A stretch of 64,000 bases of DNA, from assembly GCF_000024185.1 (NCBI RefSeq), contig NC_013790.1, forward strand, positions 1,449,501 through 1,513,500, in the 5' to 3' direction. This document shows positions 2,822 through 44,074 of the stretch, in pieces. Every line of letters starts with the position of its first letter. Position 1 is the stretch's first letter. The position numbers were made by a program, and so were the translations under genes. The notes under the pieces were generated by a model that worked only from the letters and a program-made list of their open reading frames with translations, ran no database searches and had not been told where the DNA came from. This DNA is from Methanobrevibacter ruminantium M1. GTDB taxonomy: Archaea > Methanobacteriota > Methanobacteria > Methanobacteriales > Methanobacteriaceae.

Positions 2822-3895
2822 TCAAAAGGATTCTTCATAAATTTTCATTAAAAAACTGGCTAAAGATACTATATCCATACGATTGTGCTCAATTATTGGA
2901 ATCAATGGACCAATATTATTTTCTTTTAAATAGCTTTGATAATAGTCTGGAATAAACGCTCCAGGGACATCATCTTCCCTTTTTATGCCAAACAGATTTT
3001 CTTCAATTGTGGTTAGTTTGCAGTTAGGTAATACATCTTTCCATAGATTGCGAGCCGGATATATAAGGTCGTAGTGTATCTGGTCAAGATTATAGTCCAT
3101 TCTATAATAATGTGCCCTATTCTTGATATATGGTATATCAAAGCTTGCTCCATTATAGGTTACATGAACGCTTGCCTCATCCAGATGGGAAAGGTAAGCC
3201 TCTATCACTGCAGGCTCCTCCTCAATGTCCCTTAGGAGATATTGGTTGGATTCAATCCATTTGCCTTTTATCTCAGCAATTCCAATAAGGATGATAGGGA
3301 CATTTGAAAGCCCTAAAGTTTCTATATCCATAAATTTAAGGTTAAACGGATCAAGGGAGCTTAATGCCTTAAGGGTTCTGTTCTTGTCAATCGGCTGGGA
3401 GTGATCCATAGGATATTTGGATGATTCCTTTAAAAGCTTGAAATCAGATACAAAACAGTTCCTTTCTATCCGATTCAATGCCTTTTGGGCCTTATGGGAG
3501 TATTTGTCATGTTGAAGAAGGTCATAGATTGTATGGTAGTTATTTTCCTTCAGTCTGGATTCGGTTTGATAGCCGATACCTGGAATTAACTTCAAATTTG
3601 AGGAAAGCTCATTCTTTATCTCATCTTTCTTATCCTCTAGGTGAAAGTCTAGCTTTTCCCTTCGCCTAATCCTTAAGGTCTCTCCATAGATGTTTTCAAT
3701 AACTGAACTTCCTTCTATGTCCAAGAGGTCCCAGTCCTTGTATTTGTTCATAAGTCCAAGCTTTAGCTTATTATAGTAAGTTGGGGATGATTTCCTATAC
3801 CTTTCTATGGCCTCTTTAGATGGATGTCCTGAAGATAATGAGTTTGATAGGATGCTTTTAAGGTATCTCTCATGTTCTGCTCTTCGAGATGTCAT
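2822..3895 (-). CDS. DEDD-type exonuclease, MrfB/YprB-like (RNase_H_2 family)
   Basis: Predicted 3'-5' exonuclease of the PF13482 family. Numbered from the upstream TTG at 3910, acidic residues sit at D195-x-E197 (FMDIETLG), D258 (NGASFD) and D346 with H342 (HNRMDI), a DEDDh active site. A helix-hairpin-helix segment (LIPGIGYQTESRL, about residues 108-120) precedes it. An ATG at 3895 (MTSRRAEH) is preferred to the upstream TTG; neither has a strong ribosome site. It is last in a minus-strand cluster behind a 102-residue protein and an MrfA/YprA-type helicase. In Bacillus subtilis MrfA and MrfB act together in repair of mitomycin damage, so an equivalent role is inferred here from family and synteny. 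Confidence 0.85.
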   Translation of the reverse strand: MTSRRAEHERYLKSILSNSLSSGHPSKEAIERYRKSSPTYYNKLKLGLMNKYKDWDLLDIEGSSVIENIYGETLRIRRREKLDFHLEDKKDEIKNELSSNLKLIPGIGYQTESRLKENNYHTIYDLLQHDKYSHKAQKALNRIERNCFVSDFKLLKESSKYPMDHSQPIDKNRTLKALSSLDPFNLKFMDIETLGLSNVPIILIGIAEIKGKWIESNQYLLRDIEEEPAVIEAYLSHLDEASVHVTYNGASFDIPYIKNRAHYYRMDYNLDQIHYDLIYPARNLWKDVLPNCKLTTIEENLFGIKREDDVPGAFIPDYYQSYLKENNIGPLIPIIEHNRMDIVSLASFLMKIYEESF

Positions 3896-3942
3896 TTTAT
3901 CTAGATTCAATCAATATGATAGTGTTACTGTAAACCATAAGT

Positions 3943-4251: not shown

Positions 4252-4355
4252 ATTATCACCTATTTTTATAATTTAGACTTTTTTAATAAAATTATAAATC
4301 TTTATTTCTATAAATTAACAATTTGATTATAGTTTAATTATCATTTAATAATCAT

Positions 4356-7112
4356 TTAATAACTATTCTTCAACTCAAAGTAAAATTCATTAGCCAATTC
4401 ATGAGCAGGCTCAATAGACAATGCCTTTTTAACAAAGGACAATGCTCCCATACTATCTCCTTGAATAAACAATATCTTACCAATGAGATAATAAGCATCT
4501 GCAGATTGATTGTCATAATTTATGATTATATCAGTTAGAATGTCTTTTGCAATTGAATAGTTTTCCTTATTAAACTCTTCCAATGCCTTTTCATATTCCT
4601 CTTGGGCTTCATCATCTTCTATCTCAATTTCAGCATTATCCGCTTCTCTTTCATCATCTATTTCAATTTCAGCATTATTTGGTTTTTTATCATATTCAAC
4701 TTCAACATCAGAATGTCCATTTAGATTATCATAATCACTGTTTTCAGTATTAATTCTTTCTTCCTCTAATTTAGCAAGGTCCTCTGGGCTTAGCTTATTC
4801 ATCTCATCCCACATATAATCTAAAATATATTCCGTGGCCTTCTTATGAAGTGGCTTATTATCATTGCCGCATTTTGGTGAATAAATGCAAGAAGGACATC
4901 CGTCCTTGCATTCGCAATTCTTAATCAGGTTTCTAGTTGATTTTGTAAGTTCGGTGATTAGGTCAATCGCCTTTTCACAGATTCCTATTCCTCCCTCATA
5001 TCCGTCATAGATGAATATAGTCGCTTCCTGTGTGTCCTCATGGTAATTGGTTGAAAGTCCACCTATATCAAACCTGTCGCACATCACATGAAGGGGGAAG
5101 AGTCCAATCATAGCATGCTCTGTTCCATGAAGGCCTCCTGCAAAGACTTCAGTTTCATCCTTGTAGATTTCTTCAAGCTTGTCCTTAACGCTATCTGGGA
5201 TAGTAAACCAAATTCCTTTAGTGTTGAACTTAAGTGGAGGCAGATCGATTATATATTCTCCAATAACCTTTGAATATTGCATCAGCTTATACTTAAAATA
5301 GTCTTCCTCTACTTCAAGTTCACCGAAATGGACTGTAAACTCTCCTATCCTATGCTTTTTAATCTTTTTGGTAATCTTGATGTTTGTTCTTTTCAATGCT
5401 ATTGTATGGGCTTCCACATCCTTCTTTTTGACAAAGATGAAATGGCTGTCTAGATCAACCTTATTTACAATATAGGTCTGTCCTTGGTTTATCAGCACAG
5501 CTCCCTCGTGGGCTTCCCTGTACATATTGGACTTTTCCATATGCTCTATCACAGTTCTTCCATTCATCACTGTAAATATCTCATTTGAAATCTGGTCTAA
5601 AGAAAAGTTAAAGGATGGGCTGTCATCATATGGATAGATGTAGAATCCTCTGCTTTTTCTTAAATCCCTGTTTCTGACTATATTGTCAAGGAAGTCTTCT
5701 GTAACATTGAATTCCTCTTTTGCTTCCTCTAATGTAAGTGGAAGCTCGTTAGCAGCGCAGATGATATGGTTTTTAAGTAGCTTTTCATTGTTTAGGTCAA
5801 TAACCACATTCTCATGAGGCTTGTCAAAGAAGAATTCCGGGTTTTTCATAAAGTACTGGTCCAGCTGATTCTCGAATGCAACCAAAATGACAAGGGACTT
5901 CTGATTTGTACGGCCGGATCTTCCTCCCTGTTGCCAGGTGGAAATCATGGATCCTGGAAATCCGGATATTATAACAGCATCAAGGCTTCCAATGTTTATT
6001 CCCAATTCAAGGGCATTTGTGGAGGTGACTCCCAAATAGTCTCTGGACTTCAATCCGTCCTCTATCTGCCTTCTGTCCTCTGCCAAGTAACCTGCCCGAT
6101 AGGCTGCAATCTTTTCGACGTTTCGCTTTTTGACCTTTTCCATATCACGTTTTGTCCATAGTGCAATGAGCTCTGCAATCTTTCTGGATGAGGTAAAGCA
6201 TAATGTCTGTATGTCCTTTAAAATCAGATACAGGAATATGCGCTCTGTTTCCATATGGACAGAGCGTGAATACTCATCCATGTCAAATTGGTCCTTGGAA
6301 TCCTTTTTGATTGACTTATATGGATTGTACAATACAAAATCCTTCTCTCCGCTAGGGGAGGAGTCCTCGTCAATGAGTTCAAAACTCTCTCCTGTAAGCT
6401 TCTCTGCAAGTTCCAATGGGTTTGCAAGGGTTGCTGAGGACAATATGAATTTAGGTTCAGAGCCGTAAAACTTTGCAATCCTTTTAAGTCTCCTGATAAG
6501 AAACGCCACATTGGAACCGAAGATTCCCTTATAATAATGGGCCTCATCGATGATGATATACTTTAGGTTTGAGTAGAATCGCTCCCATTGGTGGTGCCAA
6601 GCCAATATATGATGAATCTGGTATGGGTTGGTCAAGATGATGCGAGACTCCTGTCTGATTTTATATCTTTTAGCCTTTGGAGTGTCCCCATCGTAAGGGT
6701 TTGGGTTTAGATCAAGGCCCATCTCATCCTCAAAGTTCCTTAGGACCTTCAATTGGTCGTAGGATAAGGCCTTTGCAGGGTAAATATATAATGCACATGC
6801 ATCATTATCGCTAATAAGTTCCTCTAAGACTGGCAGGTTGAAGGCCAATGTCTTTCCGCTTGCTGTAGGGGTGGTTATTATGATGTTCTTATCTTCTCTT
6901 GTTTTTTCAATAGCCAATGCCTGATGTCTGTAGAGCTTTATCTTCTTATCCTCAAGATATTGGAGAATTCTTTTGTTTAATACATCTACCTTCTTATAGC
7001 TTGCATCTTTCCCTGGAATGGTTTCCACATATTCGATCTTTCTTCTAAAACGAATGTCGTTTTTGAATTGATCGATTTTGCCCATCTGCTTATCTTTGCT
7101 TTCGGTAGACAT
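4356..7112 (-). CDS. DEAH-box helicase with MZB (DUF1998) zinc domain and TPR tail, MrfA/YprA-like
   Basis: A 918-residue SF2 helicase. Walker A TPTASGKT is at residues 81-88, DEAH at 189-192, SAT at 226-228, and motif VI QQGGRSGR at about 394-401. The C-terminal MZB/DUF1998 region has GGIGICEKA and a Cys cluster (CECKDGCPSC...CGN; C733, C735, C739, C742, C748) that fits the zinc site of MrfA. After this come an acidic linker (about 785-838, with the repeated AEIEI segment) and a TPR-like tail (about 839-915), which is not part of the usual MrfA layout as far as I know. It heads a cluster with a 102-residue unknown and the MrfB-like exonuclease. Role: DNA unwinding in repair of helix-distorting or cross-link damage, by family. 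Confidence 0.9.
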   Translation of the reverse strand: MSTESKDKQMGKIDQFKNDIRFRRKIEYVETIPGKDASYKKVDVLNKRILQYLEDKKIKLYRHQALAIEKTREDKNIIITTPTASGKTLAFNLPVLEELISDNDACALYIYPAKALSYDQLKVLRNFEDEMGLDLNPNPYDGDTPKAKRYKIRQESRIILTNPYQIHHILAWHHQWERFYSNLKYIIIDEAHYYKGIFGSNVAFLIRRLKRIAKFYGSEPKFILSSATLANPLELAEKLTGESFELIDEDSSPSGEKDFVLYNPYKSIKKDSKDQFDMDEYSRSVHMETERIFLYLILKDIQTLCFTSSRKIAELIALWTKRDMEKVKKRNVEKIAAYRAGYLAEDRRQIEDGLKSRDYLGVTSTNALELGINIGSLDAVIISGFPGSMISTWQQGGRSGRTNQKSLVILVAFENQLDQYFMKNPEFFFDKPHENVVIDLNNEKLLKNHIICAANELPLTLEEAKEEFNVTEDFLDNIVRNRDLRKSRGFYIYPYDDSPSFNFSLDQISNEIFTVMNGRTVIEHMEKSNMYREAHEGAVLINQGQTYIVNKVDLDSHFIFVKKKDVEAHTIALKRTNIKITKKIKKHRIGEFTVHFGELEVEEDYFKYKLMQYSKVIGEYIIDLPPLKFNTKGIWFTIPDSVKDKLEEIYKDETEVFAGGLHGTEHAMIGLFPLHVMCDRFDIGGLSTNYHEDTQEATIFIYDGYEGGIGICEKAIDLITELTKSTRNLIKNCECKDGCPSCIYSPKCGNDNKPLHKKATEYILDYMWDEMNKLSPEDLAKLEEERINTENSDYDNLNGHSDVEVEYDKKPNNAEIEIDDEREADNAEIEIEDDEAQEEYEKALEEFNKENYSIAKDILTDIIINYDNQSADAYYLIGKILFIQGDSMGALSFVKKALSIEPAHELANEFYFELKNSY

Positions 7113-7646: not shown

Positions 7647-10214
7647 GTGATAAGTTACGAAGAATTTGAAAAGCTGGTTGTAGAGATATTAGAAAGGGAT
7701 ATCTCTTCCAATTCAGACCAAAAGGCCGCTATATCTGCTGATAAGTCACAATCCTTATTTATTGTAGCAGGTCCAGGCTCTGGAAAGACTACAGTTATGG
7801 TTTTAAAGATACTTAAATTTATTTTTGTAGATGATGTCCAGCCAAAGGAGATACTTGCAACTACATTTACTAAAAAGGCTGCTTCAGAACTATTATCCCG
7901 TATATTAAGCTGGGGAGATAAGCTTAAGAAAAAAATCCCTGTTTTTATTATGGATAAGGTAATGAATGGGGAAATGGCAGATGGCTCTGTTGTAGATAAG
8001 GTTAGAAAAATCGATTTCAATCAAATCAATGTAGGAACAATAGACAGCATAGCAGATGAGCTCTTAAGGGTCCATAGGGATGCAGGTACAAGCCAGCCTA
8101 TTCTGATTGAGGATTTTGTTGCAAATTCAGTTATGATTAATGAATGTCTTTTAAAGAATGATATGTATTTGCATGAGTCCTTGCAGGAGTATTTGGCTGA
8201 GATAACAGGAAAGGAATCTCAAATTGACCAAAAGCCTAAGGTTAAAAACCTTACAGCCATGGCAGATATCCTCCTTAGCATTAAGGAGCATATATATTAC
8301 AATATGGTTGACATTAATGATATACTGGCTGATACAAAGGATAATGAAAGGGGAAAGAAAATAGCATTGAATCTTATTATGGAATATGAAAAAACCCTTA
8401 GAAGTCAGAATATCTTTGATTTTGCCATGTTAGAGACTGAATTTTTAAACAGATTGAGTTCAGGTAAATTGGATAGCTTTTTAGATGATGTTAAAGTGAT
8501 TTTAGTTGACGAATATCAGGACACCAATCTCCTTCAGGAAAGCATTTACTTTAGGATTGCAGAATCTGCCATTAAAAATGGCGGTAACATTACTGTTGTA
8601 GGAGATGACGACCAATCTTTATACAGATTTAGAGGAGCAAGCGTTGACTTGTTTACCAATTTCATTGAAAGAGTTTCTAGAATTGGCATAGAAGCGAAAG
8701 AGATAAATCTTAAGACAAATTACAGATCAACTGAAAACATCATTGACTTATGCAATGACTTTGTTGAATTGGATGATGAGTATCAGGATGCTCGTGTAAA
8801 GGAAAAGCCTAAAATCGTTTTTCCTAATCTTGATTCTTCTGAAGATACTTCAGAAAATGAATCTCCAGAAGACCTACCTAATGAGGATGAAATAGAAACC
8901 CAAAAGATTCCTGTTTTAGGCATGTTCCGTTCATCTGAAGAAAAGCTTGCAATGGATTTGACTAACTTTTTAGATGAACTAAACAGAAAAGGAAAAGTAA
9001 AGAGAAAAGTAAAGAGAGTCTTAAACAAGGACATCAATAAAAAACTAAATTCAGACAGTGAAGATGCCTTGGAAAGCTATAAGAAGTCTGGCTTTGAGCT
9101 TGCTCAAAGCGAAGGGGAAATCATAATAGAGCTTGATGAGGAGACAGGTTCCATAGATGATGTTGCATTTTTAACATATTCCCCTAAGGAAGTCACTCAT
9201 AACTCTCGCAAATTCCCATTTATTCTTAAAAAACGCTTAGAACACCTTAGAACTCCAATTAGAGTATTCAATCCAAGGGGACAGGATCTGCAGGATATCG
9301 AATCTGTTGCAGTGTTCTGCGGGTTGATGCTTGAATGCATAGATCCAAACTCCTATTACCAGAATTCAAATAAAAAGCTTCCTCGCCTTGCAAGACGAAA
9401 TATGTCTGTATGGAGAAGAAAAGCCCAATCATTCATCAAGGATGTAAATCCAGAGCCTCACTCTCCAATTTCCCTTGAGGATTTCATAATTCATTGGCAG
9501 GTAAGGCAGCCTTTCAATACAAACGGTTCAAAAGACCTGAAATGGCCTAAGGAAGCAGGCCTAATGGAACTTGCTTATAAATTGGTTACTTGGATTGAAG
9601 AGTTTCAGGATGATGACGAAGGACTGGTATACCTAAAGGCGATTACCCAAACAATCAATCAGACAAGCTTCTTTAATAAATACTCTTCAAACATAGTTTT
9701 CACTTCCCATGAGGCTGAAGAGGAATCAATCAATGAGGCATTGATGAACATATTCGTACCTATTGCCGTTGGGGGAGTTAAGATTGATGAAAACCTATTT
9801 GAAGTCATACCTCCAAACAGGTTTAATATAATGTCCATACATCAATCTAAAGGCTTGGAATTTCCTCTTGTGATTGTAGATGTTGGGTCCAGGTTTAAGA
9901 AGAATACGGTAAGGGAATCCAACCTAAGGTTTCCTAAAAAGGCAGACAAGTCATCAATCATTCAGGATAGAATACGAAAATACAGCAGCTTAGGTGAAAG
10001 CGAAAGGGATTCAAAGGATAGGGCCTTTGATGATCTTACCCGACTATACTTTGTTGCATTCTCAAGAGCCAAGGATGTTTTGCTATTAGTTGGTTTAAAT
10101 CCAAATATTGATGGATATAAACAAAAAGATAAATTGCAAAAAATACCTAATGTTGCTTTAGGTTGGAATAGGGATGAAGAATTCATAGGGTTTGATGACA
10201 TTTATTTAATTTAA
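7647..10214 (+). CDS. UvrD/Rep-type SF1A DNA helicase without nuclease domain
   Basis: An 855-residue SF1A helicase with the full motif set: GPGSGKT (42-48), ATTFTKKAA, DEYQDT (288-293), GDDDQSLYRFRGA (about 318-330), TNYRSTEN, the QSKGLEFP region (about 733) and LYFVAFSRAKD (about 803-813). The start is GTG behind GGGGTGAT; the nearby ATG is out of frame. Between motif IV and the 2B region is an acidic, Ser/Glu-rich insert (about residues 385-520). There is no C-terminal nuclease, but the next gene downstream encodes a PD-(D/E)XK nuclease with Fe-S cysteines, giving a split helicase-nuclease pair analogous to AddAB/AdnAB-type machines. The same combination is fused in the 1,546-residue protein at 53.8-58.4 kb. 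Confidence 0.93.
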   Translation: MISYEEFEKLVVEILERDISSNSDQKAAISADKSQSLFIVAGPGSGKTTVMVLKILKFIFVDDVQPKEILATTFTKKAASELLSRILSWGDKLKKKIPVFIMDKVMNGEMADGSVVDKVRKIDFNQINVGTIDSIADELLRVHRDAGTSQPILIEDFVANSVMINECLLKNDMYLHESLQEYLAEITGKESQIDQKPKVKNLTAMADILLSIKEHIYYNMVDINDILADTKDNERGKKIALNLIMEYEKTLRSQNIFDFAMLETEFLNRLSSGKLDSFLDDVKVILVDEYQDTNLLQESIYFRIAESAIKNGGNITVVGDDDQSLYRFRGASVDLFTNFIERVSRIGIEAKEINLKTNYRSTENIIDLCNDFVELDDEYQDARVKEKPKIVFPNLDSSEDTSENESPEDLPNEDEIETQKIPVLGMFRSSEEKLAMDLTNFLDELNRKGKVKRKVKRVLNKDINKKLNSDSEDALESYKKSGFELAQSEGEIIIELDEETGSIDDVAFLTYSPKEVTHNSRKFPFILKKRLEHLRTPIRVFNPRGQDLQDIESVAVFCGLMLECIDPNSYYQNSNKKLPRLARRNMSVWRRKAQSFIKDVNPEPHSPISLEDFIIHWQVRQPFNTNGSKDLKWPKEAGLMELAYKLVTWIEEFQDDDEGLVYLKAITQTINQTSFFNKYSSNIVFTSHEAEEESINEALMNIFVPIAVGGVKIDENLFEVIPPNRFNIMSIHQSKGLEFPLVIVDVGSRFKKNTVRESNLRFPKKADKSSIIQDRIRKYSSLGESERDSKDRAFDDLTRLYFVAFSRAKDVLLLVGLNPNIDGYKQKDKLQKIPNVALGWNRDEEFIGFDDIYLI

Positions 10215-21351: not shown

Positions 21352-24300
21352 ATGAAATTTAGAACACCATCAAAGAAAGACACCAATAAGGATATTGAGA
21401 AGGAGTTTAAAAACTTAAGAAAAGAGCTCTTGGATCTAACCTTAAGAAACCCTCTTCTTAACTTTAAGGCTAGAAACCGAAATCTCAGTATTATCAATCA
21501 ATCTCCTATAAACATCTATAGGACCCTTGTTTTAGAGAATAAAAAGATGTTCTTTCAAGCAAATAAGAAAGAAACTAAAAAGTCAAAGGCCCATGCATTC
21601 ATAGATGAGGCTAAGGAGTTTCTATCACAGGAAAGCGATAAGACCTTAAAGGCAGACTTATCACCTAGTGAACTTCAAAAAAGACTCTTTTATATAGATC
21701 AGCAATCTAAGACAATGGTACAGGAGCAAGGTTACAATATCCTATACATTGCAATCGGATTTATCGAATGGATTGACAATAAGAAGCCAAGACAAAAGAA
21801 TTTAGCACCTCTCATTCTTATTCCAGTTGAAATGGAACGTAAAAAAGTTGGAAACTCTTTTTCATTATCTTGGACAGGTGAAGACTTACAGAACAATATT
21901 TCTATTCAAGCAAAGCTAAGGGAAATCGGCATAGAATTGCCTAAGTTTGAACAGACTTCCTATGTGGAAGGGGTTAACCACTATCTGGAAAATGTAAGGC
22001 AGGCAATCAGGCCATTTCCAAAATGGGATGTAAAATATGACATAGCATTAGGATTCTTCTCATTCACCAAGTTTGTAATGTATAATGACTTGAATCCGGA
22101 AAGTTGGGATGAGAACATCGACTTGACAAAAAATGAGCTTATTCAAGCAATCTTCAACCCAAGCAAGAATGTATATGAAGATACCTTTGAAGAGGATGAT
22201 GTAGATGAAAAGCTCCATTATAAGACAATGTATCAGGTTTTGGATGCAGATTCCTCCCAGATTGCAGCTATTGAAAATGTAAAGGCCGGACATAACCTTG
22301 TTGTAGAAGGTCCTCCTGGAACCGGAAAGTCACAAACCATTGTAAACTTGATAGCTGAGCTTATTGCAGAGGGGAAAACCGTTCTTTTTGTAAGTGAAAA
22401 GATGGCTGCACTTGAAGTGGTAAAAAGCAGATTGGATAGCGTAGGCCTTGGCAAGTTTGTATTGGAGCTTCATTCACATAAGACAAGACGAAAGAAATTC
22501 CTTAAAAACCTTCAAAAAGCCACTAATGTTCGCTCAACAAGGGATTTAAAGTTAGATCAAACATTAAGAAAGCTTGAAAACCTACGTGACCAGTTAGATC
22601 AATATGCAGAGATAATTCACCGTCCTATGGCAAATGTCAAGCTCAGCCCATTTGAACTCTATGGTATGAAGGAGTCTTCAGAGGATTATTTCTCCCGCCA
22701 AAATAGGTTATTGCCTTTGGTTAGGTTTGACAATCCAGAAGATATCACCATGAAGGATCTGGATGATATAATCATATCATTGGAAAACCTATCAGAGCTC
22801 TATTCAACAATATCAAAAAACAATCCTTGGAGCTATTGCAATCCGAAAAGCTTGCTTCCAGCAGATTTAAGGGAAATAGAACAGCTGATAATGGATACCC
22901 TCGAGGCACTCACTGACTTTAGATATGAGATGGACATAATAAATGAGGTCTATGGAATCAAGGTTCCAAATACCCTGCAGGAATATGAAGATTCAATCAC
23001 TGCATTAAGCCTATTAAATAGCGAGACAGTTAACCTTATTGACAGCTCCATCCTATTGAATAGGGAGTGGTATAGCAATCCTGAACAGGCACAAATTCTA
23101 ATCAAGCTATTGGCTTCATATCAGCAATCATCTAACCTCTTTGATAAGTTTACAGATTATCTTCTCATTGCTGATTTGGATACATTGATTCAAGACTTGA
23201 ATAAGGACTTGAATAAGAAATTTAGGCTCTTCGGCGGAAATTCCCATAAGGATGAGCTAAGCAGATTATATAAGGGCCCTGTTCCTAGTGAAAAGGAAGC
23301 CTTAAATGACCTTATTAAGGTACGTAAAGAAATTAAAGTTAGACAAAGCTATAATGATAATGAAAAACTTGGAATCAGATACTTTGGAGATTTATGGGGC
23401 AAGAATGCCAATGTTCAAGAGCTTAAGGAAGTTTCAATCTGGATGAGAAAGTTCACACATCTTTTATCTAATGGCACATTCAATGAAAATACCGTTAAGA
23501 TGCTTTCTAATGAAATATTCCACCCTTCAATAGATGATGGAATCGATGAATATATTGAAAAAGGCAACAGATTCTATGAAAGCCTTAAGAAACTGGAATC
23601 CAAACTCAATCCGAGAAGCAAGATTATATTTAAGAAGGAAAGCGAAGATGTTCCATTTGACAAGTGGGAAATTCAACTTAACAAATGGAAAGGACAATTG
23701 TCAAGCCTCCACTTATGGTCACAGTATTCCAATACCAAAAGGGCATGCATGAACACTCATGCTTCTATTTTCATCAAGACAGTTGAAAAGAGAAATATCA
23801 AAAAGGACGATGTAAAGCCACTGGTATTAGGTAATTTTGCAGACAGTCTCTTGAATATTGTATTTAGTGAAAATGAGATATTGGCAGGATTCATTGGAGA
23901 ATTGCATGAAAACCGCATTGCTGACTTTAAGGATTTAGATCGAAAGATCATCAATCTAAACCGAAAAAGAATATTCAATAAACTGAATAGCCAAATCCCT
24001 AAGATTTTCGGTGGAGCAAACGACCCTGAAGCAAAGATCTTAGCTGGAGAATTCACTAGAAAAAGCGGACACTTGCCAGTTAGAACCCTTCTTGAAAAGG
24101 CTGGAGGAACAATCAAAAAAATCAAGCCAGTCTTTATGATGAGTCCATTGTCAATTGCACAGTACCTCGACCCTACAAATCCTAAATTGCAATTTGATGT
24201 TGTCATTTTCGACGAGGCAAGTCAGGTTAAGCCCGAGGATGCATTAGGTGCATTCATGAGAGGAAAGACTGCTGTAGTTATGGGAGACACTCAACAATTG

Positions 24301-27300
24301 CCTCCTACAAGTTTCTTTGATCAGATGACAGACAGCGAAGGGGGAGAGGAAGTGGCAACCGCTTTGGATATGGAAAGCATTCTTCACTTATGCAAAATGT
24401 CATTCCCTGTCAAGATGCTTAAATGGCACTACAGAAGCCGCCATGAGTCTTTAATCAATATTTCCAATAGGGAATTCTATGATAATGAGCTCTTGGTCTA
24501 TCCTTCACCTTGCCATAATGACCCTGAACTAGGACTTAAATTCCATTATAATCCAAATACAGCATATCATAGAGGAGAAGGCTCTGCTAACCCATTGGAA
24601 GCAAAGGATGTTGTAAAGGAAATATTCAGACACTTTGAAAAGTATGGCGATAAGAAGAGCTTAGGTGTTGGAACATTCTCTGTTGCTCAAAAGAATGCCA
24701 TATTAGAGGAATTGGAGATTGAAAGAAAGAGCCATCCTGAATTTGAACCACTATTTTCTGATAAGAGAGAGGAAAGGTTCTTCGTAAAGAACCTTGAAAC
24801 AATTCAAGGGGATGAAAGGGATGTCATTCTAATAAGCGTAGGATATGGATATGATACAGAAGGTAAGATGTCCTTAAACTTCGGTCCTCTAAACCAAGAC
24901 GGTGGAGAAAGACGTTTGAATGTGCTTATTACAAGGGCAAGGGAAAAATGTGTTGTTTTCACCAATTTCAGAGCCCATGACATTCATCTAACAGCAAACC
25001 CTCCATTTGGGGTTAAGTCTCTACAAAGCTTTTTGGAGTATGCTGAAAACCTTTCACAAAATCAGTTCATTGACCAAGAAGAGGATGAGGAGGCTCCATT
25101 TGAGGATGCAATCTATAATTTCCTAGCAGATAACGGATATCGGGTCGATAAGAGAATCGGTTGTGCAGGATTTAGAGTGGATCTTGCTATAATTGATGAG
25201 GAGAATCCGGGAAAATACCTCCTGGGAATCCAGTGTGACGGCCATAATTATGCTTCAAGCAAGGTAGCAAGAGACAGAGACAGACTAAGAGAGCAAGTAT
25301 TAAACGGATTAGGATGGAAAATCTATCATATTTGGTCAACAGACTGGTATAGAAACAGAGACCTAGCCAGAGCTAGACTCTTGGAGCATATTGAGAATAC
25401 AATAATCACTACAAAGGTTAATGACTTGAAGTCAAAGATTCATGATGCTGAATCAATGCAGATAAATCCAGTCACTACTGTTGTTATTGATAAGAAAAAT
25501 AAGGAGAAAGATTCTGATGATGATTCAGACAGTGATAAAACTGATAAAAATAAAGAAAGCCTTATTAATAATTATTTAAAAGATTTAGAAGATGAATTTG
25601 GAGACAATAGTGATAAAAAGGACAATAATAATGAAGATGATGATTCTAATAATGATGATGGAGGATTAGTCATTGATTCAACTGATGATTCTATTGACAA
25701 TCCAGATGATGGAGGATTAGTCATTGATTCAACTGATGATTCTATTGACAATCCAGATGATGAAGGGTTAGTTATTGATTCAGATACCAATTTAGGTAGT
25801 GAAGAGTTTGATATTGGTTCTGATTCTGTTTTAGATGATGATTCTGATGATGAAGAGTTTGGTGTTGATTCTGATTCTGATTTGGATGAAGAAGAAATCA
25901 TTGAAGATTCAGAAATTAAATTAAGCGACACTCTTAATACTGATTTAAAAGATGAAGACATTTATGAACCTGAAATTGAATTAGATGACAATTCTGATTC
26001 TGATTTGGATGAAGAAGAAATCATTTATGAAAGGGAAATTCAATTAAAAGAGGGTTCTGATTTAGATACAGAAGATGAAATTATTATTGAAGAAAATAAT
26101 AACAATGGTTCTGATATTGATTTAGATTCAGATGATGTAACTGTATTTGAATTAAGTGATGAGGATTCTAGTTCTGATTCAGATGATGTGACTGTATTTG
26201 AATTAAGTGATGATGATTCTAGTTCTGATTCAGATGATGAAGAATTAGATAATGATTCCAATATTGATTTGGAAGATGAAGAATCAGATGATAATTTCAC
26301 TCTTGATTTGGAGGATCAATCAAATAATCTGATGCCAAAAAGCACTATTGATAAATCTGAGTTTTTAAAAGATTTATATGGTGAAGATGATGATTTAAGT
26401 TCAACTATTGACGAAGAACCGAAAATACTTAATGATAATAATGAAGTTATTAATAAATCTTTTGATTCAAAGGATAAAAAGAGTTCTAAAAATATTAGCA
26501 AATCTGAGCTTAAAAATCAAGAAAAAGCTAAATCTAAAACTAAATCTAAAACTAAATCTAAAGCTAAACCTAAAAATAGAAATCAAGAGATTAAAAATAT
26601 TGAAAACGGCAAAATTAAAAATGATGATTCTAAAAAAGAGCAGAATAAACCAAAATCTAAAAATAGGTCTATACTAAATAGATTAAAGAATATTGGTGGA
26701 GGTTTGGGTTTATCAAGATCAGAAGAATCTGAAGGTAAAGAATTTATTAAGGCTGAAGATAAAAAATCAAAAGAATTTGTATCCGATGCCAAAAAGTCAA
26801 TAAAAAGAAAAGACAGAAAGGCAAAAGATAAGGATTCCAATGATAAAAAAGAAATAAATAAAAAACTTAATAAAGAGCAAAATATAAAAAATAATAAAGA
26901 TAATATTGTTGAATCAGATAAAAAACAAGAGGAAATTAAAGAAGAAATTCAAAAACCTGTTCCTAAATCTAAACCAAATAATACAAAAGAGTTAATTAAT
27001 CAAAATAACAAAACCATTGAAGAATTAGAAGAATATATTAATAATAGTTCAAATAATTCTGATTTAGAATTTGATGGTGCTTCTGATATTGATTTAGAAA
27101 AAGAAATTATTTCAGAAGACAAAACTAAATTAGACGTAGAATCAGATATTCAAATGGATGATGAATATGTGATAGTTGATGATTCTGAATTGGAAGACGA
27201 ATTTGAGTTTATAGAAGAATTAGATGATGATTCTGAATTGGAAGACGAATTTGAGTTTATAGAAGAATTAGATGATGATTCTGAATTGGAAGATGAAGAA

Positions 27301-29250
27301 TTTGAATTTATTGATGATTTAGATGATGATTTTGGTTCAGAAGATGAATATGAACTAGTTGATGATTCTGAATTGGAAGACGAATTTGAATTAATTGACG
27401 ATTTAGAAGAAAAATCCAACAATTATGATAATGAAGATATTAATCTTAAAGAAGATAGTGAATATTTAGAAAAAGAAGAGTCTGAGGATATTATGAGACA
27501 AAAGGAAAGTGTTTCAAAAAGAAAGGTTGAGCATGAAATCATTGATGATTCTCTAGATGTTATTGTTCCTATAAGTGCTGAAAGAAGAGCAGATGAATAT
27601 AATAATTATTCTGAAGATGCTAATGTTATTATTCCAATTCAAGATGAAGAGGAATTTGAAGAGGAATATTATAATAATGATTCTCAAGTTGATTCTGAAG
27701 AGGGAATTGATGAATTGGAAGAATTAATCTCTGAAAACATTAATTATTCAGATGATGATGCTAGAGAAGAATTCTTAACAAATAAAGAGTCTAATCAAGA
27801 AAGTGAAGAAGATTCTTACTATTACAGCGCAGTAGGAATTGAAAATTCACTTAAAAAGAATGCTGTTCAATATCCAAAATCAAGCAATAGGAATAAAAAA
27901 GGCATTGTAGGTGCTGTATCTAGCTTAAAAGATGAAATGCTTTATATCAATGCTTCAATTAAAGAAATAGAAAACCCAACTGAAAGAGAAAAAATCTATG
28001 TGATAGACCCTTCAGAAGAGGAATACTATAATCAGCCAGATGATTCTATTTACTATAATGATTCCCTTAGTGAAAATAAGGAAAGATATGCTAAATCAAA
28101 ACAATATGAAGATGAAGTTGAAGTCATTTCTCCGGTATCAGATTCTGATGAGGGAGAAACAGGCCATATTCAATCTGATTATATTGAAAGAAAAGCTGAA
28201 GACAGTTCTAAATCTAGTTCTGAATCCTTATTTAGTCCTAAAAAACATGAATATTTGGATAAAATTAAGGAATATGCTGCTGAATCTGAATATGAAGAGG
28301 CAGCTGAAAACCCTACAATAAGTCCAGTTCATACTGAAATTGAAGAAAGTGTTGAATCTTCTGTAATTAGCCCGGTTCATACTGAATATGTTGAAACTGT
28401 TGAATCTTCTGCTATCAGCCCTGTCCAACAGGAATATGACAAAACAGAGGAACCTTCAACCATAAGTGCTGAAGATCAAGAAACAGAGTTTATTGATGAT
28501 ATTCTTTTAGAAGAAGATGAATTATCAAATATTCAAGATACTGATGACTCTGCTTTAGCTGAAGAAGAACCGGAATCTATAGAAATAGATGATGATGAAT
28601 TTGAAAGCATTATCACTGATGTGGATCAAGATTATCAAGAACTTGAAAAAGAGAGAATAAAGGAAGCTAATGTATTAAGTGCAGTAGATAATACCAGATT
28701 AACTCCTACCGGCAAATTAGAAGATTATATCGTGGCATATAAGGAAATTGATGATGTCATTATCAAAAGTGCCACAGAAATATATGATGATGAGAAGAAA
28801 GTGGCTACTGCAGTTATGGACATTGTAAGTGCAGAAGGCCCTATTCATGTAGATATGGTTATACGCCGGATTAGGGAAAGCTGCAATCTCTCTAGAGCAG
28901 GCACTAAATTTAAGGAAGCTATATTTAAGGCAATTGACCGCAATGAATCTCATATGAATCTTATAAGAGAAGAGGATTTCTTATTTATAGATTATGACCA
29001 AATTGCAGTTAGAAAAAGAGATAAACCTAATATAGACCTTATTTCTGATTTGGAAATAGAAAATGCTATAGATTTGGTATTAAGCTTTGAAAAATCATTA
29101 AAGGTTAAGGAATTAGCTAGAATCGTTTCTAGAACCTTAGGTTTTAAATCCACTTCTAAGAAAACTTCAGCTAAGATTTTAGAAGTCATTGATGTTATGA
29201 TCGGCAAAGAGATTTTAGTAAATGTTAATGATAAAATAGAATTTAGATAA
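21352..29250 (+). CDS. Giant DUF4011 / SF1 helicase / MTES_1575 nuclease / DUF3320 protein with long acidic insert
   Basis: A 2,632-residue protein. The N-terminal DUF4011-type region (LLDLTLRNPLLNF, about residues 25-37) leads into an SF1 Upf1-like helicase: GPPGTGKS (320-327), FDEASQ (953-958), MGDTQQLPP (about 977-985), TIQGDERD (about 1151) and RRLNVLITRAREK (about 1186-1198). Next is a Vsr/MTES_1575-type nuclease (about 1250-1350; D1277 in FRVDLAI, D1296 in IQCDGHNY, then RDRDRLREQ and WSTDWYR). Residues about 1380-2490 are low-complexity: Asp/Glu/Ser repeats, a Lys-rich block (KSKTKSKTKSKAK), then more acidic repeats. The DUF3320 domain follows at about 2495-2560 (EGPIHVDMVIRRIRE). Relatives are usually 1,500-2,000 residues. 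DUF4011-helicase-Vsr proteins have been linked to phage defence; here that is inference. Confidence 0.93.
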   Translation: MKFRTPSKKDTNKDIEKEFKNLRKELLDLTLRNPLLNFKARNRNLSIINQSPINIYRTLVLENKKMFFQANKKETKKSKAHAFIDEAKEFLSQESDKTLKADLSPSELQKRLFYIDQQSKTMVQEQGYNILYIAIGFIEWIDNKKPRQKNLAPLILIPVEMERKKVGNSFSLSWTGEDLQNNISIQAKLREIGIELPKFEQTSYVEGVNHYLENVRQAIRPFPKWDVKYDIALGFFSFTKFVMYNDLNPESWDENIDLTKNELIQAIFNPSKNVYEDTFEEDDVDEKLHYKTMYQVLDADSSQIAAIENVKAGHNLVVEGPPGTGKSQTIVNLIAELIAEGKTVLFVSEKMAALEVVKSRLDSVGLGKFVLELHSHKTRRKKFLKNLQKATNVRSTRDLKLDQTLRKLENLRDQLDQYAEIIHRPMANVKLSPFELYGMKESSEDYFSRQNRLLPLVRFDNPEDITMKDLDDIIISLENLSELYSTISKNNPWSYCNPKSLLPADLREIEQLIMDTLEALTDFRYEMDIINEVYGIKVPNTLQEYEDSITALSLLNSETVNLIDSSILLNREWYSNPEQAQILIKLLASYQQSSNLFDKFTDYLLIADLDTLIQDLNKDLNKKFRLFGGNSHKDELSRLYKGPVPSEKEALNDLIKVRKEIKVRQSYNDNEKLGIRYFGDLWGKNANVQELKEVSIWMRKFTHLLSNGTFNENTVKMLSNEIFHPSIDDGIDEYIEKGNRFYESLKKLESKLNPRSKIIFKKESEDVPFDKWEIQLNKWKGQLSSLHLWSQYSNTKRACMNTHASIFIKTVEKRNIKKDDVKPLVLGNFADSLLNIVFSENEILAGFIGELHENRIADFKDLDRKIINLNRKRIFNKLNSQIPKIFGGANDPEAKILAGEFTRKSGHLPVRTLLEKAGGTIKKIKPVFMMSPLSIAQYLDPTNPKLQFDVVIFDEASQVKPEDALGAFMRGKTAVVMGDTQQLPPTSFFDQMTDSEGGEEVATALDMESILHLCKMSFPVKMLKWHYRSRHESLINISNREFYDNELLVYPSPCHNDPELGLKFHYNPNTAYHRGEGSANPLEAKDVVKEIFRHFEKYGDKKSLGVGTFSVAQKNAILEELEIERKSHPEFEPLFSDKREERFFVKNLETIQGDERDVILISVGYGYDTEGKMSLNFGPLNQDGGERRLNVLITRAREKCVVFTNFRAHDIHLTANPPFGVKSLQSFLEYAENLSQNQFIDQEEDEEAPFEDAIYNFLADNGYRVDKRIGCAGFRVDLAIIDEENPGKYLLGIQCDGHNYASSKVARDRDRLREQVLNGLGWKIYHIWSTDWYRNRDLARARLLEHIENTIITTKVNDLKSKIHDAESMQINPVTTVVIDKKNKEKDSDDDSDSDKTDKNKESLINNYLKDLEDEFGDNSDKKDNNNEDDDSNNDDGGLVIDSTDDSIDNPDDGGLVIDSTDDSIDNPDDEGLVIDSDTNLGSEEFDIGSDSVLDDDSDDEEFGVDSDSDLDEEEIIEDSEIKLSDTLNTDLKDEDIYEPEIELDDNSDSDLDEEEIIYEREIQLKEGSDLDTEDEIIIEENNNNGSDIDLDSDDVTVFELSDEDSSSDSDDVTVFELSDDDSSSDSDDEELDNDSNIDLEDEESDDNFTLDLEDQSNNLMPKSTIDKSEFLKDLYGEDDDLSSTIDEEPKILNDNNEVINKSFDSKDKKSSKNISKSELKNQEKAKSKTKSKTKSKAKPKNRNQEIKNIENGKIKNDDSKKEQNKPKSKNRSILNRLKNIGGGLGLSRSEESEGKEFIKAEDKKSKEFVSDAKKSIKRKDRKAKDKDSNDKKEINKKLNKEQNIKNNKDNIVESDKKQEEIKEEIQKPVPKSKPNNTKELINQNNKTIEELEEYINNSSNNSDLEFDGASDIDLEKEIISEDKTKLDVESDIQMDDEYVIVDDSELEDEFEFIEELDDDSELEDEFEFIEELDDDSELEDEEFEFIDDLDDDFGSEDEYELVDDSELEDEFELIDDLEEKSNNYDNEDINLKEDSEYLEKEESEDIMRQKESVSKRKVEHEIIDDSLDVIVPISAERRADEYNNYSEDANVIIPIQDEEEFEEEYYNNDSQVDSEEGIDELEELISENINYSDDDAREEFLTNKESNQESEEDSYYYSAVGIENSLKKNAVQYPKSSNRNKKGIVGAVSSLKDEMLYINASIKEIENPTEREKIYVIDPSEEEYYNQPDDSIYYNDSLSENKERYAKSKQYEDEVEVISPVSDSDEGETGHIQSDYIERKAEDSSKSSSESLFSPKKHEYLDKIKEYAAESEYEEAAENPTISPVHTEIEESVESSVISPVHTEYVETVESSAISPVQQEYDKTEEPSTISAEDQETEFIDDILLEEDELSNIQDTDDSALAEEEPESIEIDDDEFESIITDVDQDYQELEKERIKEANVLSAVDNTRLTPTGKLEDYIVAYKEIDDVIIKSATEIYDDEKKVATAVMDIVSAEGPIHVDMVIRRIRESCNLSRAGTKFKEAIFKAIDRNESHMNLIREEDFLFIDYDQIAVRKRDKPNIDLISDLEIENAIDLVLSFEKSLKVKELARIVSRTLGFKSTSKKTSAKILEVIDVMIGKEILVNVNDKIEFR
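25655..25812 (+). repeat. 51-bp coding repeat in the giant gene
   Basis: GGAGGATTAGTCATTGATTC recurs at 25660 and 25711, and in changed form at 25762. It encodes the repeat (G/E)GLVIDSTDDSIDNPDD. The near-identity of the DNA points to recent duplication. Confidence 0.75.
27178..27321 (+). repeat. 48-bp coding repeat in the giant gene
   Basis: GATGATTCTGAATTGGAAGA recurs at 27178, 27226 and 27274, encoding DDSELEDEFEFIEEL. A further copy of the DSELEDEFE segment follows at about 27364. Confidence 0.75.
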
Positions 29251-31176: not shown

Positions 31177-31464
31177 TTAATCAGAATCAATCTTTTCTAG
31201 CTGATCTAACTCTGAGTTAAATTTATAATCCTGAAATTGATAATATTTAAACCTATAAGGCATTTTAGATTTTTTAGGTTTGCGACTTTTAGGCTTATTT
31301 TTATTTTTTTGCCTATCTAATCTAGCTCTTTTCTTGTCTCTGTTTCTTTGAGCTCTCTCTTTATGAGATAGCCTAGCTAGAGTTTTCTTTTTACGTTCAT
31401 TAGGAGATTTATATGTTTTCTTATGGGCTAATCTCCTTCGAGTATGGATAAGAGTGATTGACAT
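31177..31464 (-). CDS. Small highly basic hypothetical protein
   Basis: A 95-residue protein; residues 8-70 are dominated by Arg and Lys (TRRRLAHKKTYK, ARLSHKERAQRNRDKKRARL, KNKNKPKSRKPKKSK), followed by an aromatic stretch (YRFKYYQFQDYKF) and an acidic end (ELDQLEKIDSD). It is not a family I recognise. The charge suggests nucleic acid binding. It lies 24 bases behind another small gene on the same strand and next to the repeat-rich non-coding region. It may be real because the codons form a long basic, structured pattern with an in-frame ATG, but the ribosome site is weak. Confidence 0.55.
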   Translation of the reverse strand: MSITLIHTRRRLAHKKTYKSPNERKKKTLARLSHKERAQRNRDKKRARLDRQKNKNKPKSRKPKKSKMPYRFKYYQFQDYKFNSELDQLEKIDSD

Positions 31465-37881: not shown

Positions 37882-40785
37882 CTATTTAGCACTATTTTCT
37901 TCAACTAACTGCTTTGCAAGAGCAGTTCTATTCTCATTTAAAACTACTTTTAAGAAATCACCAGTATATGTTCCAGATTCAGCAATCTCTTCAGGTGTTC
38001 CAGTTGCAATGACTTCACCGCCGCCATCTCCACCTTCAGGACCTAAATCAATAATATAATCCGCTGTTTTAATAACGTCAAGGTTGTGTTCAATAACAAC
38101 AACAGAATTGCCTGCATCAGTCAATCTGTCTAAAACATTCAATAATTTCTTAATGTCGTCAAAGTGAAGACCTGTAGTAGGCTCATCCAAAATATATAAT
38201 GTTTGGCCTGTGCTTGTCTTGGAAAGCTCCTTAGCTAATTTTACCCTTTGTGCTTCACCACCTGACAATGTGGTTGCAGGCTGTCCAAGCTTTATATATC
38301 CTAATCCTACATCATATAATGTCTGCAACTTTCTTGCCACTCTTGGAATATTCTCAAAGAACTCTAAAGCTTCTTCAACAGTCATTTCTAATACTTCATA
38401 GATGTTTTTGCCTTTAAATCGGATATCCAAGGTTTCTTCATTATATCTCTTTCCTTTACAGACTTCACAAGGAACATAAACGTCAGATAGGAAATGCATC
38501 TCAATCTGTATGATTCCATCACCGAAACAGGACTCGCATCTTCCTCCCTTTACATTGAAACTGAATCTTCCAGGTTTGTATCCTCTTGCCTTGGCTTCAG
38601 GAGTTTCAGCAAAAAGCTCCCTTATAGGAGTGAATACCCCTACATAAGTTGCAGGATTGGAACGTGGAGTTCTGCCTATAGGTGTTTGGTCAATTCTAAT
38701 GATCTTATCAATGTTTTCAATGCCTTCAATGGAATCATGCTTTCCAGGATGCATGTATTTCTTATTTATCTTTGTAGAAAGGCCCTTATACAATACCTGA
38801 TTTATCAGGCTGCTTTTTCCAGAGCCGCTGACTCCTGTAATACAAGTGAATAGTCCCAATGGAATCTCAACATCAATATCCTTTAGGTTGTTTTCCCTTG
38901 CACCTTTGATGGTGAGGAAATTGCCGTTTCCGCTACGTCTGTCCTCTCTGATTGGTATGAATTCCCTTCGAGATAGGTATTTTCCTGTAATGGACTCTTC
39001 TGATTCCATAATCTCTTCAGGACTGCCTTCTGCAATGATCTTTCCTCCATGCTCACCAGCTCCTGGGCCTATGTCAATGACATAGTCTGCAGATAATATG
39101 GTTTCTTCATCGTGCTCCACAACAATCAGGGTATTTCCTATGTCTCTTAGGTGCTTTAAGGTTTCAATAAGCTTTACATTGTCCCTCTGGTGAAGGCCTA
39201 TGCTTGGCTCATCTAGGATATATAGAACCCCAACCAGACCTGAGCCTATCTGTGTAGCGAGGCGAATCCTTTGGGCTTCCCCTCCGGATAATGTTCCAGA
39301 GGATCTTGACATTGTAATGTAATCCAATCCCACATCAACTAAAAACTTCAATCGGGCCTTAATCTCTTTTAGAATCTCTTTTCCAATATACATCTGCCTT
39401 TCTGTAAGCTCCAGTTCCTGGAAGAACCTATAGCTTTCCTTGATTGATAAATCACATACGTCTATGATTGATTTGTCCCCTACAGTTACAGCCAATACTT
39501 CAGGGCGAAGCCTCTTTCCTCCACAGACTGGACATTTTAAGTCACTCATGAATTTAGAGATGTATTTGCGGTTATAATTAGATTTGGTTTCAAGGTACAG
39601 TCTTTCCATTCTTGTGATAACACCTTCAAATTTACGATTCACCCTATATGATCTGTTTCTTCTTTTAAAGGCAAATGCCACCTTTTCATTTGAGCCATAT
39701 AATAATATATGCTGATGCTCTTCGCTTAAGTCCTTGAAAGGTGTGTCCATGCTAAAGTTGAAATGTTCAGCTACAGCCTGTAACATTTGGTAATAGTAGT
39801 TTTCCTTCTTATTTGACTTTGACCAAGGAACTATGGCTCCTTCATTCAATGAAAGATTTTTATTGGGAACGATTAGGTCTGGATTCATTTCCATCTTTGT
39901 TCCAATACCATTACATTCAGGACATGCTCCCTGCGGAGCATTGAATGAAAACATCCTAGGTGTCAATTCTTGAAAACTTATGCCACAGTCGGTACATGCA
40001 AAGTCTTCAGAATATGTTTTTTCGTACTCGGTTTCATTTCCTTCACTATCCCTTCCATTAAACATGACAGTCACTATGCCTTCTGCAAAATTACAAGCTG
40101 TTTCTACAGAATCTGACAACCTTCTTTGGAAGTCTGTTCCTTCCCTTATTACAAGGCGGTCAACAACCAAATCTATGCTATGGCGGAAGGTCTTTGCAAG
40201 CTCAATTTCCTCATCAAGCCCACGGATTTCACCGTCTATTCGGGCTCTGACAAATCCGTTTTTTCTGAAGTCTTCCAATATGTCCTTATGCTCCCCCTTA
40301 CGGTCTTTAATGACTGGAGCTAGCACATGAATCTTTAATCCTTCCCCTTCTTCTATTATGGATTCGGTTATTTGACCTATGGTTTGATGAGAGACTTCCT
40401 TTCCACAGTTTGGACAGTGTGGAATTCCTATTCTTGCATATAATAAACGTAAGTAGTCGTATATTTCAGTAATTGTTCCTACAGTTGATCTTGGATTTAC
40501 TTTTGTAGTCTTTTGGTCTATGGATATTGCAGGTGAGAGACCTTCTATATAATCCACTTCAGGCTTTTTCATCTGTCCTAAAAATTGTCTTGCATAAGCA
40601 GATAATGATTCTACATATCTACGCTGTCCTTCAGCATAAATGGTATCAAAAGCAAGTGTAGATTTGCCGGAGCCACTTAATCCGGTTACTACTATGAATT
40701 GATCACGTGGAATGGATACATCAATATTTTGAAGGTTATGTTCTCTTCCACCCTTTAATATGATGTTTTTTCTTTCTGAACTCAT
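37882..40785 (-). CDS. uvrA: Excinuclease ABC subunit A
   Basis: A 967-residue DNA damage-recognition ATPase of nucleotide excision repair. It contains two ABC ATPase halves (GLSGSGKST near residue 35 and GVSGSGKSS near 635), two LSGGEAQR signatures ([11 protein letters not shown] and RVKLAKELS follow), and the zinc modules CPNCGKE, CTDCG...CPECNG, CPVCGG and CESCFGDG...CEVCKG. It is full length. Of two adjacent ATG codons the second (40785) has better spacing from GGGTGA. uvrB and uvrC are not in the window. In archaea UvrABC is found in a limited number of lineages, including Methanobacteriales. Confidence 0.97.
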
Positions 40786-41178
40786 CATTTCACCCTAATA
40801 ATAAGAAAGTCATATTTTAATTTATTTTATCGAATAAAGGATAATTATAATTTTTTATTTATTTATAAATTTATTTTATCGAATAAAGGATAATTATGAT
40901 TTTAATTTATTATATCTTATATAAATAAGATTAGCAAGAGCGCTTGCAAACTAATATTTATTTAATAAATTAAAATTGTTTTTATTTATACAAACAATTT
41001 AATATTAGTTTTAACTATTATATAAAATTAATGATTTTTAAAAATGATTTGATTAATGAATTTAATAAAAAAAGAATTTAATAAATTATTTAAACAATTT
41101 ATTGAATAAAATAATTTATTCGCTTAAAAAATATTATTTGGATTGGTTTAATAAAAAAATAAAAAAGAATAAGAAGAT
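40786..41178. repeat. Intergenic region with a 30-bp direct repeat
   Basis: AATTTATTTTATCGAATAAA begins at 40819 and 40868 (period 49; 30 bases identical). This is the upstream region of uvrA, so the repeat may duplicate promoter sequence. The rest, up to the htpX stop, is AT-rich without other structure. An isolated GCAAGAGCGCTTGC palindrome sits at about 40932. Confidence 0.55.
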
Positions 41179-42147: not shown

Positions 42148-42238
42148 ATTATAACTCCTTTTTTTATTATAAAATTAAGCAATTCTGATATAAATATTTA
42201 TTTATTTAATTTTAAGATATTCAAAAAAGTCATATTCT

Positions 42239-42420
42239 AATTAAAACTAGAATTAAGTGAAATTTGAATAATTCAATTAAAACTAGAATTAAGTGAAATT
42301 TGAATAATTCAATTAAAACTTGAACAAGAAAATTAAATATTCAATTAAAACTAGAATTAAGTGAAAACTGAATAATTCAATTAAAACTAGAATTAAGTGA
42401 AAACTGAATAATTCAATTAA
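42239..42420. repeat. 36-bp tandem repeat, six copies, overlapping the rfcL stop
   Basis: AATTAAAACTAGAATTAAGT-type units start at 42239, 42275, 42311, 42343, 42379 and 42415 (period 36, one copy 32). Copy three is divergent (ACTTGAACAAG). The last copy runs into the rfcL stop codon at 42417. The array lies between rfcL and htpX on the same strand. Confidence 0.8.
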
Positions 42421-44009: not shown

Positions 44010-44074
44010 AATTTTAACCTAAAATATAAAACTTAAACTTAAAACTAATATGAATAACTCATCAATTGGCTTCA

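What the first reader, a model, noticed from the sequence alone, without database searches (positions are those of the whole stretch)
21352..29250. Giant DUF4011 helicase-nuclease with a ~1,100-residue acidic disordered insert
The sequence shows DUF4011-type, SF1 helicase, Vsr/MTES_1575-type nuclease and C-terminal DUF3320-like regions in one 2,632-residue frame. Known relatives carry the same domains in order without such an insert, and DUF4011-helicase-Vsr proteins have been reported in anti-phage defence. The insert separates nuclease and DUF3320 and is strongly Asp/Glu/Ser-rich with a central Lys-rich block. It could be a flexible tether, a DNA mimic that restrains the nuclease, or a sensor of phage DNA-binding proteins (inference).
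Basis: partly seen in the sequence, partly recalled or inferred. Interest (0 to 1): 0.82.

Follow-up and report, generated by a model that had tools for sequence, protein, structure and literature searches.

The report
Domesticated archaeal helicase, giant acidic tether
This methane-producing archaeon carries a very large DNA helicase of a phage-defence family that its whole lineage has kept as a core gene near DNA-repair genes; along the way its nuclease lost key active-site residues and a short acidic linker grew into a roughly 1,100-residue disordered tether, so it looks more like an adopted house-keeping machine than a phage-defence nuclease.

Summary
In detail: one intact 2,632-aa gene with DUF4011, SF1 helicase, MTES_1575 (Vsr-like) nuclease and C-terminal DUF3320, with a ~1,126-residue acidic (32% D/E, net -241), predicted disordered stretch between nuclease and DUF3320. 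It is not an assembly artefact. Relatives across the order have the same layout, and the stretch is an expanded linker: 62-135 aa in distant homologues, 70-98 in Methanothermobacter-like genomes, 128-213 in two sister genera, 399-1,126 in one fully supported clade. The interpretation changes in two ways. (1) The gene behaves as a vertically inherited core gene (69 of 70 non-g11 family genomes). Its ancestral neighbours are MrfA and MrfB, a helicase-exonuclease DNA-repair pair; lineages lacking it also lack MrfB. (2) The E-x-D-G-x-x-Y-H nuclease motif, invariant in plasmid-borne homologues, is eroded here (Q1294, A1301; E kept in 26% and H in 0% of the long-spacer clade), while helicase motifs are kept. 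So 'acidic DNA mimic restraining an anti-phage nuclease' is unlikely. Best reading: a domesticated helicase with a probable pseudo-nuclease and a tandem winged-helix tail on an acidic tether, probably serving genome maintenance. No function was tested.

The parts
21352..29250 (+). DUF4011-SF1 helicase-MTES_1575-spacer-DUF3320 gene, 2,632 aa (orthologue of PDC-S37-type proteins)
21424..21918 (+). DUF4011 domain (aa 25-189)
22249..24966 (+). SF1 (Upf1/IGHMBP2-like) helicase, aa ~300-1205; Walker A at aa 320, DEAS at aa 954; motifs near-invariant in 41 homologues
25099..25392 (+). MTES_1575 (Vsr-like PD-(D/E)XK) nuclease domain, aa 1250-1347, with degenerate motif
25231..25254 (+). eroded catalytic motif, aa 1294-1301 QCDGHNYA (ancestral ECDGxxYH): Glu to Gln at 1294, His to Ala at 1301
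25408..28785 (+). acidic disordered spacer, aa 1353-2478 (1,126 aa, net charge -241)
26458..26910 (+). Lys-rich block inside the spacer (aa ~1703-1853); clearly positive bins in 3 of 4 members of this genus examined, weak elsewhere
27817..28020 (+). conserved islands inside the spacer (aa 2156-2223; consensus PLRKNxxYY ... YINKSLKEIENPT ... VIDR), with a predicted helix at aa ~2185-2207
28771..29247 (+). C-terminal tandem winged-helix module containing DUF3320 (aa 2474-2632; pLDDT about 95)
4356..7112 (-). MrfA (YprA-type SF2 helicase with MZB domain); ancestral upstream neighbour, here 14 kb away
2822..3910 (-). MrfB-like DEDDh exonuclease; ancestral immediate upstream neighbour, here 17 kb away

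Best explanation
A DUF4011 SF1 helicase-nuclease of a family otherwise found in candidate phage-defence loci and on plasmids was fixed early in Methanobacteriales as a chromosomal core gene, next to the MrfA helicase and MrfB exonuclease (shown). In this lineage the helicase engine is kept intact while the Vsr-like nuclease lost the conserved Glu and His of its active site, several times for the Glu, so it is probably a non-cleaving DNA-binding module (shown in sequence; inactivity inferred). The ~65-90-residue acidic linker before the C-terminal tandem winged-helix module grew once, in the ancestor of the Methanobrevibacter-like clade, into a 400-1,126-residue acidic disordered tether (shown). 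Inferred mechanism: the enzyme is an ATP-driven translocase for genome maintenance, most likely on the same damaged or blocked DNA as MrfA/MrfB. The acidic tether lets the winged-helix module reach far from the helicase, and its charge competes with DNA for the basic surfaces of helicase, pseudo-nuclease and winged helices, keeping the protein off undamaged DNA until a specific substrate displaces it.
For: Core, single-copy, vertical: orthologue in 69 of 70 non-g11 genomes of the family at >=90% completeness and 7 of 8 Methanothermobacter-like genomes; genera with several members mostly form clades in the core tree. Repair context: MrfA>MrfB>DUF4011, same strand, gap to MrfB 0.4-1.0 kb in seven f3, two g14, one g3 and one g10 genome; identities confirmed by MZB (PF09369), MrfA 6znp E 1.8e-146 and MrfB 8un9 E 5.4e-23. 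Co-absence: MrfB missing from all 13 g11, all 4 f2, G097 and G105, exactly where the orthologue is missing. Pseudo-nuclease: E and H of ExDGxxYH 8/8 in plasmid homologues, E 7/7 and H 6/7 in the paralogue clade, intact in g14/g3, but E 26% (seven different residues) and H 0/23 in the long-spacer clade, L + S/R in f3; D1277, D1296 and Y1300 kept; 73/75 reference-invariant helicase columns kept. Spacer: single expansion clade, SH-aLRT 100; length 399-1,126, always net negative, while sequence drifts (35-46% identity within genera against 79-87% for the core). Tail = tandem winged helix. Precedent for acidic disordered regions tuning DNA search: PMC10250230.
Against: No functional data on this protein. 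Loss of the Glu does not prove inactivity: Vsr itself, from my knowledge, lacks an acid there, and D1277 and D1296 remain. Co-absence with MrfB could reflect one deletion of adjacent genes rather than shared function, and rests on few events. Other neighbours are also conserved between f3 and g14/g3, so part of the adjacency is regional synteny, and in genus g8 linkage is gone (60-550 kb). A core gene can still defend: P. aeruginosa has a core DUF4011 gene beside a defence hotspot (PMC10250203). The acidic-competitor role of the spacer is inference only.
Confidence: 0.5

Rival explanations
1. It is still a resident anti-virus helicase-nuclease (PDC-S37/Hhe-like) that every cell of the lineage carries; the acidic region restrains a slow or altered nuclease, or senses viral DNA-binding proteins.
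For: Best profile match is the PADLOC candidate defence family PDC-S37 (1,622 bits) with Hhe and Mokosh helicases next; plasmid homologues lie beside CRISPR, SIR2 and restriction genes; D1277/D1296 kept.
Against: Near-universal and vertical, not patchy; the ExDGxxYH motif invariant in plasmid homologues is eroded here; it scores below the curated ProA (1,308 < 1,500) and Hhe (909 < 2,000) cut-offs; ancestral neighbours are repair genes.
Confidence: 0.25
2. The spacer has no dedicated function: a neutral, repeat-driven expansion of an unconstrained acidic linker, tolerated because both ends fold independently.
For: Tandem repeats in the spacer DNA with periods of 24-63 bases; fast divergence and length variation.
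Against: All 23 long-spacer members keep it at >=399 aa with net negative charge through many divergences; conserved islands persist within it; in-frame maintenance throughout the clade; the linker is already acidic in 51% GC Methanothermobacter-like genomes, so it is not AT bias.
Confidence: 0.2
3. The open frame is an assembly or annotation fusion of separate genes (helicase-nuclease, acidic protein, DUF3320 protein).
For: None found; the length alone is unusual.
Against: The same order in one frame in more than 25 independently assembled genomes, and the shorter version in Methanothermobacter-like genomes and plasmids.
Confidence: 0.01

Closest known systems
PDC-S37 (PADLOC-DB phage defence candidate, single gene)
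   Same: DUF4011, SF1 helicase and MTES_1575 in order; 1,622 bits over aa 13-1387
   Different: Spacer expanded more than tenfold, degenerate nuclease motif, core-gene distribution and MrfAB synteny
NCBIfam ProA (NF058533) and Hhe (NF042953) anti-phage proteins
   Same: Homologous DUF4011-helicase-Vsr core (1,308 and 909 bits)
   Different: Below the curated cut-offs (1,500 and 2,000), so not a member of either equivalog
Core DUF4011 gene flanking defence hotspot cDHS1 of P. aeruginosa (PMC10250203)
   Same: A DUF4011 gene that is core in its species
   Different: Compared from the paper only; spacer and motif of that protein were not examined here
MrfAB mitomycin repair pathway (B. subtilis; PMC11194089)
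   Same: Window genes 4356-7112 and 2822-3910 are homologues of MrfA and MrfB; the paper leaves room for further unknown partners
   Different: No DUF4011 protein is described in the passages of that paper retrieved here; association proposed here from synteny and co-absence only
D/E-rich disordered autoinhibitory regions of eukaryotic DNA-binding proteins such as HMGB1 (PMC10250230)
   Same: Strongly acidic disordered stretch attached to DNA-binding domains
   Different: Here ~1,100 residues, internal rather than terminal, archaeal, effect untested

Membership tests
PDC-S37 (PADLOC) | Full-length profile match over DUF4011, helicase and nuclease | tested here: met
   1,621.9 bits, protein 13-1387 to profile 4-1372 of 1,550; this library gives no cut-off
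PDC-S37 (PADLOC) | Intact nuclease motif ExDGxxYH as in plasmid homologues | tested here: not met
   Q1294 and A1301 here; E and H in 8/8 plasmid homologues
PDC-S37 (PADLOC) | Anti-phage activity | not testable with these tools
   needs an infection assay
NCBIfam ProA / Hhe | Score above curated cut-off | tested here: not met
   1,307.9 < 1,500 and 909 < 2,000
SF1 Upf1-like helicase | Walker A/B and motifs III-VI | tested here: met
   GPPGTGKS, FDEASQ, GDxxQLPPT, HYRS, IQGDERD, GGERRLNVLxTRA near-invariant in 41 proteins; 73/75 reference columns kept
MTES_1575 / Vsr-like nuclease fold | Profile match | tested here: met
   PF18741 5.6e-34, aa 1250-1347
MTES_1575 / Vsr-like nuclease fold | Catalytic activity | tested here: inconclusive
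   Two conserved Asp kept, Glu and His lost; no assay possible
MrfA-MrfB repair system | MrfA and MrfB genes present and adjacent | tested here: met
   449 bp apart in this genome
MrfA-MrfB repair system | DUF4011 protein acts with MrfAB | tested here: inconclusive
   Ancestral adjacency and co-absence, but no functional test

The most novel reading that the evidence does not exclude
MrfA, MrfB and this DUF4011 protein form an undescribed three-component archaeal DNA-repair system in which a captured defence helicase with a dead nuclease is the third partner, and its 400-1,126-residue acidic tether works as a built-in electrostatic gate that keeps the machine off undamaged DNA.
Probability: 0.25. 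Interest if true: 0.75.

Novelty: new variant of a known kind. Interest (0 to 1): 0.55.

Why it matters
It offers a traceable case of a phage-defence-type helicase-nuclease turning into a core gene: the tree shows where the linker expanded and where the active site eroded, and versions with an intact motif and a short linker survive in sister genera and as paralogues for direct comparison. It gives a candidate for the further partners of MrfA/MrfB that PMC11194089 leaves open, and shows that a defence-library hit in a genome need not mean a working defence nuclease. The spacer is among the longer acidic disordered regions one could test for electrostatic control of a helicase.

Tried and rejected
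Assembly-fusion explanation: rejected by more than 25 independent genomes with the same frame. AT-rich codon bias as the cause of acidity: rejected, since the linker is acidic at 51% GC too. Insert unique to this species: rejected. Insert as a horizontally gained domain: no Pfam match inside it. Literature for 'DUF3320 with phage' and 'PDC-S37' found nothing. Structure profile search with alignment A1 gave no PDB hit. AlphaFold of helicase C-part to DUF3320 (pTM 0.44) was too weak to place the tail against the nuclease. Only the C-terminal part of the spacer was modelled.

Full report
Observation. The frame 21352-29250 (+) encodes 2,632 aa without a stop, in one copy, in a complete-looking 2.94 Mb single-contig genome. 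Pfam places DUF4011 at 25-189, SF1 helicase domains over about 300-1205, MTES_1575 at 1250-1347 and DUF3320 at 2482-2520. The best named families are PADLOC PDC-S37, then Hhe; NCBIfam ProA and Hhe match below their cut-offs.

Spacer. Residues 1353-2478 carry 32% D/E and a net charge of -241, and 99% of windows are on the disordered side of a charge-hydropathy plot. AlphaFold2 on residues 2137-2632 gives low confidence (pLDDT about 35-45) for most of the spacer's end, one short helix of about 80 at 2185-2207, and pLDDT about 95 for two winged-helix domains at 2474-2632; Foldseek hits are weak and winged-helix in type, e.g. SelB. Among 226 sampled genes of the genome the longest acidic run was 95 against 270 here.

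Evolution of the spacer. The same measurement in relatives gives 62-135 aa in seven of eight plasmid homologues from bacteria and haloarchaea (the eighth, L213, had too weak a DUF3320 match to measure), 70-98 in Methanothermobacter-like f3, 128-213 in g14/g3, about 55-62 in g13/g15, 45-200 in a ~45%-identical paralogue clade, and 399-1,126 in the Methanobrevibacter-like clade. In an ML tree of the cores all 23 long-spacer proteins form one clade with SH-aLRT 100, sister to g14/g3 plus f3. Within genera the spacer is 35-46% identical while the core is 79-87%, yet net charge stays negative in every member. Two conserved islands (2156-2176, 2196-2223) persist in most members. The Lys-rich block is clear in three of the four members of this genus examined and weak elsewhere.

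Core gene and context. At >=90% completeness the orthologue is in 69 of 70 genomes of the family outside g11; g11 has none but often carries the paralogue (for most g11 genomes this assignment rests on identity, four sequences were placed on the tree). Seven of eight f3 genomes have it, f2 and f4 do not. In f3, g14, g3 and g10 the order is MrfA, MrfB, DUF4011 on one strand with 0.4-1.0 kb between MrfB and DUF4011; in this genus they are 12-20 kb apart and in g8 60-550 kb apart. MrfA and MrfB identities rest on PF09369 and PF13482 and on PDB matches 6znp (1.8e-146) and 8un9 (5.4e-23). MrfB is absent from all 13 g11, 4 f2, G097 and G105, which are the lineages without the orthologue; MrfA stays in g11 and f2. 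Four draft genomes lack MrfB but have the orthologue; in one of them MrfA sits at a contig edge. Caveats: other neighbours are conserved between f3 and g14/g3 too, and adjacent genes can be lost in one deletion.

Literature context. PMC12458937 divides YprA/MrfA helicases into a repair branch, including MrfAB, and a defence branch, and does not mention DUF4011. PMC11194089 states that MrfAB acts independently of UvrABC and leaves unknown partners open. PMC10250203 reports a core DUF4011 gene beside a defence hotspot in P. aeruginosa.

Nuclease. The motif E-C/T-D-G-x-x-Y-H is invariant in eight plasmid homologues; in the paralogue clade the Glu is 7/7 and the His 6/7, and g14/g3 keep both. Here it reads QCDGHNYA. 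Across the long-spacer clade the Glu is kept in 26% and replaced by I, L, M, N, Q or T; the His is kept in none of 23. f3 has Leu and Ser/Arg. D1277, D1296, Y1300, the RDRLR stretch and the tryptophans are kept, and 73 of 75 reference-invariant helicase columns are kept against 20 of 32 in the nuclease. The scatter over the tree means several independent losses of the Glu. I infer a pseudo-nuclease; because Vsr itself lacks that acid (my knowledge) residual activity is not excluded.

Reading. The protein is best described as a captured PDC-S37-type helicase that became a core gene beside MrfAB, with a degenerate nuclease and a winged-helix tail on a greatly expanded acidic tether. What is shown: anatomy, distribution, synteny, co-absence, motif erosion, single expansion. 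What is inferred: loss of cleavage, a role in genome maintenance with MrfAB, and the tether as reach plus electrostatic gate. Confidence in the whole reading is 0.5; a resident anti-virus role (0.25) and a functionless spacer (0.2) are the live rivals.

Noticed in passing
window 31177-31464 (-): A 95-aa strongly basic (Lys/Arg-rich) protein lies convergent to the acidic giant and is conserved next to it in this genus (7 of 8 high-quality genomes); no Pfam match.
   Followed up: partly
L169, L170, L171, L172 (paralogues in g8/g11): A second giant architecture: ~2,200-2,480-aa DUF4011 proteins whose extra length lies inside the helicase (around residues 571-651 of our numbering), with no Pfam domain in the insertion of the two scanned, L169 and L172, and with an intact ECDG motif.
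   Followed up: partly
L066 (Methanobrevibacter UBA586): The orthologue is split over four short frames: a pseudogene or sequencing errors.
   Followed up: no
window 2822-10214, 37882-45028, 53800-58440: The window is rich in DNA replication and repair genes: MrfA, MrfB, UvrD-like helicases, UvrA, two RFC-like clamp-loader subunits and a UvrD-PDDEXK protein.
   Followed up: no
window 4356-7112 (-): This MrfA homologue carries C-terminal TPR-like matches and is 918 aa, against ~774 aa in g11, which lacks MrfB.
   Followed up: no
plasmids collection, hits H1-H25: DUF4011-DUF3320 proteins occur in 365 plasmid records, 244 of them Klebsiella, which fits a mobile defence role for the wider family.
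   Followed up: partly
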